From the NCBI RefSeq assembly GCF_015560805.1, contig NZ_JADMSO010000009.1, positions 62,733 to 126,732 of the forward strand: 64,000 bases of DNA. The letters are read 5' to 3'. Shown in pieces: positions 35,693 to 38,461 of the stretch. Every line of letters starts with the position of its first letter. Position 1 is the first letter of the stretch. The position numbers and the translations under genes are program-made. Below the pieces are notes generated by a model. It had not been told where the DNA came from, searched no databases, and saw only the letters and a program-made list of their open reading frames with translations. This DNA is from Mediterraneibacter glycyrrhizinilyticus (lineage in GTDB: Bacteria > Bacillota > Clostridia > Lachnospirales > Lachnospiraceae).

Positions 35693-38461
35693 TCAAGAGC
35701 AACGATTTCCGTCCGGTATATTTTCATCGCTTCCAACACTTGCATTTTCTTTCCCTAGCCGTACTTCTTCCATTTCTTTCGCCGTCTCTTCATCCAAATA
35801 ATGAAACAGATAATTTTTCGTACTTTCCGCTTTTTCCATATGATTTTCACGCAGCTCTTTCTGCGCCAGTACGATCTCGGTATGCAGTTCCTTTGCCGAC
35901 AGCAAATGACATCCCTGTCCGCGGATGATCACCTGTTCCGTGCCGTCCGAAGTTGCGACGGTGACTTCATATTTCCGCCCGATCTCATGTGCAACTTTTT
36001 CGATATACTGATCTGCGGTTTCCGCTTCCTTTGTATAAACGACATGGATATTATGATATTGCTGTATCTCGCCCGGAAATCCCTCTACCTTATATGCATC
36101 AAATACAAGGATCAAGGTACACTTCCGGATTCCCTGATAATTGCTCAAAATGTCCATCAGCCGCCCGCGCGCACCGTCAATGTTGATCTTGGCCAACTCG
36201 CGGAGTTCTTCCCATGCAAAGATAATATTATAACCGTCCACCAGCAAATATTCCTTTCGGCGCTCCCGTTTTCTGCTCTTATATTCTCCGGTACTGTTTG
36301 AACCAGTATCCAGTTCTGTCTTTCGATAAGAATATTTTTTTCTCGCCTGCTCCCGTTTCCGTCGGGAGGCTTCCGCCATCTTTTCCAGTTCCCGTTCCTC
36401 TTCCGGTGACAGACTGCTTACATATCTGGCTCTCTGCACCGCCGCGCTGACCGCCTGTTCGTCAAACGGATCCTGCTCCGGCTCTTCCTCTTTTGGTTTG
36501 AAGACCGACTCCAGATGCATATAATCCTCCACCTGATCCCACGGCACTACAAATCCCGCCCCATGGGCACAAAATACCGAACCGGTCGGATTCTCCAGAT
36601 CCCGCTCCGAATCATAGCCGATCGCTGTGAGCACTTCCTCGGCATTGCTGCATGGCTTGTACCCACTCAGACTGCAGGAAAGCCGTCCCCGCCCCTTAGT
36701 ATAGGAAATCACTTTCCTCTGATAATCCTGCATCAGAGCAACCGGCGCTTCCCCGCTGAGCACTGCCATCTCGCCGATCTGCTCCGGCGATCCGAATGTT
36801 CCGTTCATCCGCTGAAGATCCGAGAGCGCACGTCCGACCATCTCCGACGGAACTTCCAGTCTGTATTCATAATATGGCTCCAACAGTACGCTTTCTGCCT
36901 TTTTCAATCCCTGCCGCACAGCCCGGTAAGTTGCCTGCCGGAAATCACCGCCCTCCGTGTGCTTTTGGTGTGCCCGACCGGAAACAAGTGTGATCTGCAT
37001 ATCCGTGACCGGCGATCCGCTCAACACCCCCAAATGTTCTTTTTCTTCCAAATGTGTCAGGATCAGACGCTGCCAGTTTTTATCCAGCACATCTTCACTG
37101 CAATTGGACAGAAAATGCATTCCGCTTCCGGGTTCTCCCGGCTCCAACAGCAGATGGACTTCCGCGTAATGCCGGAGCGGTTCAAAATGTCCGACTCCCT
37201 CCACGGTATTTCGGATCGTTTCTTTATATACAATATTTCCGGCTCCGAACTCCACACGCACACCAAACCGTTCCGCGATCATACTTTTCAGGATCTCTGT
37301 CTGGACTTCTCCCATCAACTGCGCGTGGATCTCTCCCAGGCGTTCATTCCATACAATATGGAGCAGCGGTTCTTCCTCTTCCAGTTGCTTCAGATTCTGC
37401 AGCATTTTATGCACATCACAATCCTGCGGAATCCGGATCTGATAAGTCAGTACCGGTTCCAGCACCGGAAGAAACGATTCTGACTCGCATCCGATTCCCT
37501 CGCCCGGATAGGTTTTGGAAAGTCCGGTCACAGCACAGACTTCCCCGGCTTTCACCTGCCCTGCCGTCTCATATTTTGCTCCGGAATAAATACGGATCTG
37601 ATTCACTTTCTCTTCCAAAAGTTCTTCTTTTACATTCAGGCAGCCGCCGGTCACTTTTAAAAATGTCAGACGGTTCCCCTGCTCGTCCCTTGCGATTTTG
37701 TATACTTTTGCACCAAATGCTTCCGGATAAGACGGCTCTCTCGTCAATACCGAGACCGCATGCATCATTTCTTCCACGCCGTTTAACTTCAGTGCAGATC
37801 CGAAAAAGCACGGAAAAATTTTCCTTTTCGAAATCATTGAGACCAGATCTTCTTTTTCCATCTCTCCTGTTTCCAGATAGCGCTCCAGAACAGCCTCGTC
37901 ACAGACCGCTGCATTTTCGGCAAATATTTCGTCTGATAAAAGTCCGTCAATCCCCTGTTCTGATGTAAAATCAAGACAATTCCCGCTCAGATACTTCTGC
38001 AGATTCTGCATCAACTTTTTCCGGTCTGTTCCCTCCTGATCCATTTTATTGACAAAAAGAAACGTTGGGATCTCATATCTCGTCAACAATTTCCAAAGTG
38101 TCTCCGTATGCCCTTGCACGCCGTCCGCTCCGCTTACGACCAATATCGCATAATCCAGGATCTGGAGCGTCCGCTCCATCTCCGCCGAAAAGTCCACATG
38201 CCCCGGCGTATCCAGAAGAAATACTTCTGTATTTTCATCCAACACAAGCCTTGCCTGTTTGGAAAAAATCGTGATCCCTCTGGCACGCTCCAACGCAAAC
38301 GTATCCAGAAATGCATCTTTATTATCTACCCGCCCCATCTTGCGAATACTGCCGGCTGTGTAAAGCATCGCTTCCGACAGGGTTGTCTTTCCTGCATCCA
38401 CATGGGCCAATAGCCCGATACATAAATGTCTTTTTGGTCTATTTTCTGATGGATTGTTCAT
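35693..38461 (-). CDS. TetM-like ribosomal GTPase fused to a YacP/Rae1-type NYN nuclease
   Basis: A 922-residue fusion. Residues 1-690 form a translational GTPase of the TetM/EF-G type: AHVDAGKTTL (19-28), RARGITIFSKQ, DTPGHVDF and NKMDQ, then EF-G-like domains II-V ending near VFCAHGAGFVVPWDQVEDYM. A basic linker (about 690-735) follows. From residue 736 there is an NYN domain of the YacP/Rae1 type, with acidic active-site positions in LLVDGYNIIF, LVFDAYK and ATSDGTEQ. TetM relatives remove tetracycline from the ribosome, and Rae1 is a ribosome-bound A-site mRNA nuclease in Bacillus subtilis. Both halves thus target the ribosomal A site. It may be a rescue or quality-control factor rather than an antibiotic resistance protein. 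Its promoter is shared with the divergent gene. Confidence 0.9.
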   Translation of the reverse strand: MNNPSENRPKRHLCIGLLAHVDAGKTTLSEAMLYTAGSIRKMGRVDNKDAFLDTFALERARGITIFSKQARLVLDENTEVFLLDTPGHVDFSAEMERTLQILDYAILVVSGADGVQGHTETLWKLLTRYEIPTFLFVNKMDQEGTDRKKLMQNLQKYLSGNCLDFTSEQGIDGLLSDEIFAENAAVCDEAVLERYLETGEMEKEDLVSMISKRKIFPCFFGSALKLNGVEEMMHAVSVLTREPSYPEAFGAKVYKIARDEQGNRLTFLKVTGGCLNVKEELLEEKVNQIRIYSGAKYETAGQVKAGEVCAVTGLSKTYPGEGIGCESESFLPVLEPVLTYQIRIPQDCDVHKMLQNLKQLEEEEPLLHIVWNERLGEIHAQLMGEVQTEILKSMIAERFGVRVEFGAGNIVYKETIRNTVEGVGHFEPLRHYAEVHLLLEPGEPGSGMHFLSNCSEDVLDKNWQRLILTHLEEKEHLGVLSGSPVTDMQITLVSGRAHQKHTEGGDFRQATYRAVRQGLKKAESVLLEPYYEYRLEVPSEMVGRALSDLQRMNGTFGSPEQIGEMAVLSGEAPVALMQDYQRKVISYTKGRGRLSCSLSGYKPCSNAEEVLTAIGYDSERDLENPTGSVFCAHGAGFVVPWDQVEDYMHLESVFKPKEEEPEQDPFDEQAVSAAVQRARYVSSLSPEEERELEKMAEASRRKREQARKKYSYRKTELDTGSNSTGEYKSRKRERRKEYLLVDGYNIIFAWEELRELAKINIDGARGRLMDILSNYQGIRKCTLILVFDAYKVEGFPGEIQQYHNIHVVYTKEAETADQYIEKVAHEIGRKYEVTVATSDGTEQVIIRGQGCHLLSAKELHTEIVLAQKELRENHMEKAESTKNYLFHYLDEETAKEMEEVRLGKENASVGSDENIPDGNRCS

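What the first reader, a model, noticed from the sequence alone, without database searches (positions are those of the whole stretch)
35693..38461. A ribosomal GTPase fused to an A-site-type nuclease
Seen: a TetM/EF-G-like GTPase (residues 1-690) is joined by a basic linker to a YacP/Rae1-type NYN domain whose DGYN, FDA and SDGTE acidic positions are intact. Known: TetM relatives work at the ribosomal A site, and Rae1 of Bacillus subtilis cleaves mRNA there. Inference: the fusion may dock on stalled or drug-bound ribosomes and cut the message, as a built-in surveillance or rescue factor. It would usually be annotated as tetracycline resistance, which would hide this.
Basis: partly seen in the sequence, partly recalled or inferred. 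Interest (0 to 1): 0.75.

Follow-up and report, generated by a model that had tools for sequence, protein, structure and literature searches.

The report
Ribosome GTPase fused to mRNA cutter
This bacterium carries one gene that joins a ribosomal-type GTPase to a nuclease of the Rae1 family, and in many Clostridia this fused gene is found instead of the usual separate Rae1 gene; the protein is predicted to dock on ribosomes and would likely cut the mRNA held in them.

Summary
The minus-strand ORF 35693-38461 (922 aa) has EF-G/Tet-like GTPase domains (residues 10-606), a C-terminal extension, a linker and an intact Rae1-type NYN nuclease domain (739-901). The fusion is already in print: Atkinson 2015 reported it in ten clostridial species and suggested RNase-based antibiotic resistance. 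My calls add: (1) 104 of 291 sampled genomes of the class carry it, in 25 families; (2) no sampled genome has both the fusion and a separate Rae1 gene; (3) in 19 of 20 separate-Rae1 genomes tested the gene sits just before sigH, while in the 26 of 60 fusion genomes that still have rlmB next to sigH the slot holds no Rae1 gene, and three carry a clear decayed remnant there; (4) it lies outside the Tet clade, far below the Tet cut-off, and its genome has a separate true Tet gene. Best reading: Clostridia moved Rae1 onto a Tet-sister GTPase, probably making a factor that docks on ribosomes and cuts their mRNA. Ribosome binding, cleavage and the role of GTP are untested. The GTPase half also occurs without the nuclease, so it likely has a job of its own.

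The parts
35693..38461 (-). Fusion gene, 922 aa plus stop, ATG start
38470..38476 (-). AAAGGGG, likely ribosome-binding site 8 nt before the ATG
   Evidence: read from sequence; inferred
37751..38434 (-). GTP-binding domain (residues 10-237); P-loop AHVDAGKTT, DTPGH and NKMD intact
37244..37459 (-). EF-G domain III (residues 335-406)
36893..37237 (-). EF-G domain IV (residues 409-523)
36938..36979 (-). Domain IV loop III, GRAHQKHTEGGDFR (residues 495-508); differs from Tet (GLYYSPVSTPADFR) and EF-G (GSYHEVDSSEMAFK) at equal length
36644..36889 (-). EF-G domain V (residues 525-606)
36515..36643 (-). C-terminal extension (residues 607-649) with SVFCAHGAGFVVPW...YMH; S628, F630, G634, W641 invariant in 45 of 45 distinct fused proteins
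   Evidence: predicted structured
36257..36514 (-). Charged linker (residues 650-735); 656-685 and 704-734 have pLDDT under 50, helix 686-713 predicted at low confidence
35759..36247 (-). NYN_YacP / Rae1-type nuclease domain (residues 739-901)
36236..36238 (-). D742 (pairs with Rae1 D7)
36098..36100 (-). D788 (pairs with Rae1 D53)
36011..36013 (-). D817 (pairs with Rae1 D81)
35945..35947 (-). D839 (pairs with Rae1 D104)

Best explanation
The gene encodes a Rae1-type nuclease joined to a ribosomal-type GTPase, and the fused protein is predicted to dock on ribosomes, most likely paused ones, and would then cut the mRNA at or next to the A site. Shown by sequence: the domains, the intact catalytic residues of both halves, the place of the GTPase as a sister group of Tet proteins, and the carriage of the fusion instead of the separate Rae1 gene, with an emptied operon slot and some decayed Rae1 remnants. 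Inferred: that the fusion does Rae1's job. Inferred mechanism: the GTP-bound body enters the factor site as EF-G and TetM do, domain IV probes the A site, GTP hydrolysis lets the body leave or swing away, and the nuclease on its flexible leash enters the freed A site or entry channel and cuts, so that Rae1 is delivered to chosen ribosomes instead of arriving by diffusion. The GTPase probably also has an activity of its own, because it persists without the nuclease in other bacteria.
For: Domains and catalytic residues. Rae1 of B. [quoted passage not shown] Exclusivity: of 188 class genomes with an NYN_YacP over cut-off (of 291 searched), 104 are fused and 84 separate, 0 both; 30 'both' would be expected if independent (a naive figure that ignores kinship). 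A phylum sample (398 genomes, overlapping; 205 with NYN) also shows none with both: two have two matches, G507 two separate copies and G608 one gene cut by contig ends. Slot: NYN 24-169 bp before sigH in 19 of 20 separate-Rae1 genomes; 26 of 60 fusion genomes keep rlmB next to sigH (gap 15-636 bp) with no Rae1 there. Remnants: Rae1 profile 37.5, 20.3 and 17.2 bits in the gaps of G025, G112 and G086, best of 200 shuffles each 5.2, 3.0 and 2.8. Within one genus (g36): G059 intact Rae1 and no fusion; G025 fusion plus remnant; G136, G201, G242 fusion and no remnant. The model folds both ends with a disordered tether between.
Against: No experiment. The GTPase half lives without any NYN: 6 of 16 GTPase-only class genomes have none, and Bifidobacterium, Collinsella and Ligilactobacillus copies nested in the fused clade lack the NYN, so the halves need not work together. 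Rae1 is often absent altogether (103 of 291 class genomes have no NYN over cut-off), so an empty slot alone proves little; I did not test the slot in those genomes. 34 of 60 fusion genomes have a rearranged locus or no sigH match and are uninformative; 12 of 17 testable gaps show no convincing remnant. GTPase domain IV and Rae1 cannot both fill the A site at once, so a hand-over must be assumed. No conserved gene neighbours point to a partner.
Confidence: 0.55

Rival explanations
1. A tetracycline ribosomal protection protein, with the nuclease as a helper of resistance (the suggestion in Atkinson 2015).
For: Sister clade of Tet proteins; often named TetM/TetW family; loop III keeps the Tet length, and a paper reports that a triple S508A/P509A/V510A Tet(M) can still be active (PMC4750697, passages), so the different loop sequence does not exclude activity; a Tet-type C-terminal extension is present; two fusions lie on replicons filed as plasmids (Monoglobus 518 kb, Agathobacter 252 kb).
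Against: 389-435 bits against the Tet cut-off of 775 in five distinct fused proteins scanned; Tet clade 100/99 apart on long branches; loops I and III unlike Tet; seven fusion genomes, the own one included, carry a separate Tet over cut-off (G000, G026, G035, G048, G152, G232, G282).
Confidence: 0.12
2. An rRNA or tRNA processing factor: the GTPase brings the NYN nuclease to immature ribosomal subunits.
For: NYN_YacP was proposed for rRNA and tRNA maturation (cited in PMC4342817); separate Rae1 genes here lie beside rlmB (rRNA methylase), with an mrnC-like ORF in the two read (by eye); LepA and BipA, related GTPases, are linked to subunit assembly (search listings only).
Against: The characterised NYN_YacP protein, Rae1, cuts mRNA in ribosomes. 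Fused NYN genes have left the rlmB neighbourhood.
Confidence: 0.15
3. Two ribosome-related activities joined only for co-expression: the GTPase clears or remodels A sites, the NYN works as free Rae1 would, and the link has no mechanistic role.
For: GTPase alone persists in other lineages; in G243 the NYN is separate, nested in the fused NYN cluster, and the genome holds a GTPase-only protein of the sister clade; linker predicted disordered.
Against: The fusion is kept across 25 families; a linker motif recurs in 41 of 45 distinct proteins against a mean of 0.02 in shuffled linkers, though the pattern was written after seeing the sequences and the window's own protein lacks it.
Confidence: 0.18

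Closest known systems
Rae1/YacP of Bacillus subtilis (PF05991, PDB 5mq8/5mq9)
   Same: Same nuclease domain over its length; the four aspartates pair; the fusion is found in its stead
   Different: Rae1 is a free ~170-aa protein, encoded before sigH in the Clostridia tested; here it is the C-terminal part of a 922-aa GTPase encoded elsewhere
TetM/TetO/TetW ribosomal protection proteins (NF012153, NF033148)
   Same: Same GTPase domain order, sister clade, C-terminal extension
   Different: Under the Tet cut-offs, different loops I and III, longer extension with SVFC..G..V.W..YMH, nuclease domain
EF-G (TIGR00484)
   Different: 303 bits against a cut-off of 659; the own genome has its own EF-G
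Clostridial 'Tet proteins with YacP-like NYN domain' of Atkinson 2015 (PMC4342817)
   Same: Same architecture, reported there in ten species
   Different: There read as Tet proteins with a possible RNase-based resistance; here found in Rae1's stead and outside the Tet clade

Membership tests
Rae1/YacP nuclease | NYN_YacP domain over the curated cut-off | tested here: met
   178.5 bits, cut-off 24.6
Rae1/YacP nuclease | Catalytic aspartates conserved | tested here: met
   D742, D788, D817, D839 in 45 of 45 distinct fused proteins; pairing with Rae1; that D7 and D81 are the key residues is recalled
Rae1/YacP nuclease | Gene beside rlmB and sigH | tested here: not met
   own genome: cysS-mrnC-rlmB-sigH-like order with no Rae1 gene; this position is usual for separate Rae1, not a strict requirement
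Rae1/YacP nuclease | Translation-dependent mRNA cleavage at the A site | not testable with these tools
   bench only
Tet ribosomal protection protein | Score over NF012153 cut-off (775 bits) | tested here: not met
   428.4 bits; the own true Tet gene scores 852.4
Tet ribosomal protection protein | Placed inside the Tet clade | tested here: not met
   sister, Tet clade 100/99
Tet ribosomal protection protein | Raises tetracycline resistance | not testable with these tools
   bench only
EF-G | Score over TIGR00484 cut-off (659.4 bits) | tested here: not met
   303.3 bits
EF2-type translational GTPases | GTP-binding domain plus domains III, IV, V with intact G motifs | tested here: met
EF2-type translational GTPases | Ribosome-stimulated GTP hydrolysis | not testable with these tools
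   bench only

The most novel reading that the evidence does not exclude
A large branch of the Clostridia has rebuilt ribosome-linked mRNA decay by welding Rae1 to a Tet-sister GTPase, making a one-piece machine that docks on a stalled ribosome, spends GTP to check its A site, and then cuts the message there. The free Rae1 gene became redundant and rotted away in its operon. A great many proteins now labelled tetracycline resistance or EF-G-like would be this surveillance factor.
Probability: 0.4. Interest if true: 0.82.

Novelty: new variant of a known kind. Interest (0 to 1): 0.6.

Why it matters
If true, it ties a GTP-driven ribosome factor to a message-cutting enzyme in one chain and gives a direct test of how Rae1-type nucleases reach ribosomes. 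It would also mean that many clostridial genes labelled tetracycline resistance are housekeeping mRNA-surveillance genes, which would distort resistance-gene counts.

Tried and rejected
Rosetta-stone pairing: I expected GTPase-only genomes to carry a separate Rae1. 10 of 16 do and 6 do not, against 84 of 187 non-fusion genomes overall, so no convincing enrichment; G131 was too truncated to use. Conserved operon partner: none shared beyond close relatives in 28 fused loci (some from the same or near-identical genomes) and the window. Defence system: PADLOC gave only a 15-bit ThsB match. Viral carriage: no pattern match in viral contigs, a search that finds close relatives only; the phage collection was not searched (one search failed). 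Second, independent fusion in family f5 (G001, G232): long branches, the trees cannot decide. A drug-specific role from loop III: the sequence differs, but published Tet(M) changes show tolerance. Linker motif: a first strict pattern matched 4 of 45; a looser one, written after seeing the sequences, 41 of 45; absent in the window's own protein. Second NYN hits in G136, G201, G242 and the hit in G248 are 20-21.5 bits, under cut-off, and were not counted. In the VIA-align list the rows cover mainly model residues 6-640, so it says nothing about the nuclease.

Papers: Atkinson 2015 PMC4342817 passages; PMC6613710 and PMC10100781 passages; PMC4750697 passages; PMC8161019 passages, nothing useful. 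Leroy 2017 (Rae1), Condon 2018 (Rae1 distribution) and Li 2013 (TetO) are not held; Condon 2018 may already mention this fusion. Searches for print on the fusion; among the listed papers only Atkinson 2015 was seen to describe it.

Full report
OBSERVATION. The ORF is real, 922 codons, on the minus strand at 35693-38461. Pfam finds GTP_EFTU, EFG_III, EFG_IV, EFG_C and NYN_YacP in order. The nuclease half aligns over its length with YacP/Rae1 of B. subtilis, and the four aspartates pair. The GTP-binding motif residues checked are unchanged in 45 of 45 distinct fused proteins (one threonine, T64, in 44), as are the four aspartates. These 45 come from the loci I fetched, after dropping duplicate genomes and one truncated row.

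HOW COMMON. Of 291 genomes drawn from the class, 188 have an NYN_YacP over cut-off. I class 104 as fused, in 25 families: 88 by the open frame at the NYN row; 11 whose row was not listed there, nine seen and two (G001, G232); and 5 whose gene is cut or split (G051, G139, G180, G215, G221). The other 84 are separate. One of the 84, G224, is probably a fusion broken by contig ends, since its NYN falls inside the fused cluster. None has both. In a phylum sample of 398 genomes, which overlaps the first, 205 have NYN at E <= 1e-12 and all but two have a single match; the two are G507 (two separate copies) and G608 (one gene cut by contig ends). Fused proteins carry names from at least six genera, such as Acetivibrio, Ruminiclostridium, Desulfosporosinus and Desulfitobacterium (best 120 listed).

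WHOSE PLACE IT TAKES. In the own genome the order is cysS-mrnC-rlmB-sigH, with 18 bp between the rlmB and sigH matches and no Rae1 gene (rlmB and sigH by TIGR00186 and TIGR02859; cysS and mrnC by eye). I then took 60 fusion and 20 separate-Rae1 genomes, chosen by hand, mostly for completeness; eight of the 80 had been looked at before. In 19 of 20 the separate NYN lies 24-169 bp before sigH, and in 15 of these it is also within 100 bp of rlmB; the exception, G243, is discussed below. In 26 of 60 fusion genomes rlmB and sigH are still neighbours (15-636 bp) and none has a Rae1 gene there; the other 34 are rearranged or lack a sigH match and say nothing. I did not test the slot in genomes without any NYN.

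REMNANTS. A profile built from 44 separate NYN domains was run on the sense frames of the gaps of 18 fusion genomes: all 17 with gaps of 114 bp or more, plus the own genome, whose 18-bp gap is too short. G025 (37.5 bits), G112 (20.3) and G086 (17.2) stand far above 200 dinucleotide shuffles each (maxima 5.2, 3.0, 2.8). G159 (8.1) and G222 (6.1) beat all shuffles but are weak; G155 (2.3, none of 200) and G199 (3.4, 3 of 200) are marginal; the other ten show nothing. Intact controls score 220 and 226. tblastn with 95 NYN queries agrees for G025 (best E 3e-8) and G112 (1e-5) and is poor for G086 (0.006). So some genomes with the fusion still hold a rotting Rae1 in its old slot. In genus g36 all three stages are seen: G059 (intact Rae1, no GTPase match at E <= 1e-110), G025 (fusion plus remnant), G136/G201/G242 (fusion, no remnant). 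In genus g31, G259 has the intact separate gene while G020 and G054 have the fusion.

NOT THE TET GENE. The protein scores 428 bits with the Tet model (cut-off 775). Of 291 class genomes, 20 have a Tet over cut-off, seven of them fusion genomes, the own one included (G000:C4, 852 bits). Two ORFs beside the own Tet gene look mobile-type by eye (recalled labels, no family scan); the genes beside the fusion do not, but two other fusions lie on replicons filed as plasmids, so this is a weak point. Trees put EF-G outside, Tet proteins as one clade, and the fusion with GTPase-only relatives as its sister (quick, careful but thinned, with the long-branched L107 and L108 left out and a bootstrap that had not quite settled). 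Loop III of domain IV, which a paper calls the functionally most important loop of Tet(M) (PMC4750697), reads GRAHxKHTEGGDFR here, YGLYYSPVSTPADFR in Tet and DGSYHEVDSSEMAFK in EF-G. The same paper notes that loop changes can be tolerated, so this lowers but does not exclude activity on tetracycline.

THE GTPASE ALONE. In the class, 16 genomes have a GTPase-only relative (plus one truncated); the 14 genomes treed all fall in the sister clade. A second set (Bifidobacterium, Collinsella and the Ligilactobacillus salivarius megaplasmid) is nested inside the fused clade and lacks the NYN. So the GTPase has value without the nuclease, and I treat it as an active partner, not a passive tether. In G243 the reverse seems to have happened: its separate NYN is 60% identical to the window's, lies inside the fused NYN cluster, is not at the Rae1 slot, and the genome has a GTPase-only gene elsewhere. 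In the NYN tree the fused domains cluster, apart from G232 on a long branch, but the split from separate ones is weakly supported (77/93).

STRUCTURE. The AlphaFold2 model (63 rows) has mean pLDDT 80.8 and pTM 0.63; both ends fold with confidence, and residues 656-685 and 704-734 are below 50, so the nuclease is predicted to hang on a flexible leash and its place relative to the body is not predicted. The body matches EF-G chains best. A short linker motif is found in 41 of 45 distinct proteins and 0.02 on average in shuffled linkers; the pattern was written after seeing the sequences, and the window's protein lacks it.

MECHANISM, WITH STATUS. Shown: composition, conservation, exclusivity, empty slots, some remnants. 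Inferred: that the fusion does Rae1's work; that the body binds the factor site; that the nuclease cuts at or near the A site after hand-over from domain IV; that stalled ribosomes are the target.

NOVELTY. The architecture is in print (Atkinson 2015, ten species). I found no print on replacement of Rae1 or on the remnants in the listings, but Condon 2018 on Rae1 distribution could not be read. Hence 'new variant of a known kind' and interest 0.6.

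Noticed in passing
window 35625-35667, 38499-38581, 17164-17439, 44968, 45760: Short interspersed inverted repeat AGCGTCAGTGTACAAG: 9 copies in the window at up to 3 mismatches (0.18 expected) and 113 in the own genome at up to 2 mismatches (2 for the reversed control). Inverted pairs flank the fusion gene on both sides.
   Followed up: partly
G000:C4:8642-10558 (L265:5043-6959): The own genome carries a separate canonical Tet-type gene (852 bits with NF012153; 1308 with NF033148, cut-off 1100), beside a very long ORF and a small TnpV-like ORF (label recalled, by eye).
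   Followed up: partly
L106 4986-5504 (G243:C1): A separate NYN gene nested in the fused NYN cluster, next to aspS/gatCAB-like genes (labels by eye): a likely fission of the fusion.
   Followed up: partly
L004 3983-5917 (Ligilactobacillus salivarius pMP118); L176, L181, L182: NYN-less copies nested in the fused clade, in a lactobacillus megaplasmid (beside rpsN) and in Bifidobacterium and Collinsella: apparent transfer with loss of the nuclease.
   Followed up: partly
linker of fused proteins, e.g. L002, L036, L045: Short conserved motif in the otherwise disordered linker (41 of 45), of unknown role; absent in the window's own protein.
   Followed up: partly
L098 and L099 (G121:C1): Two GTPase-only paralogues in one genome.
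   Followed up: no
window 38673-39320: Protein with two L-rhamnose mutarotase (rhaM) stretches.
   Followed up: no
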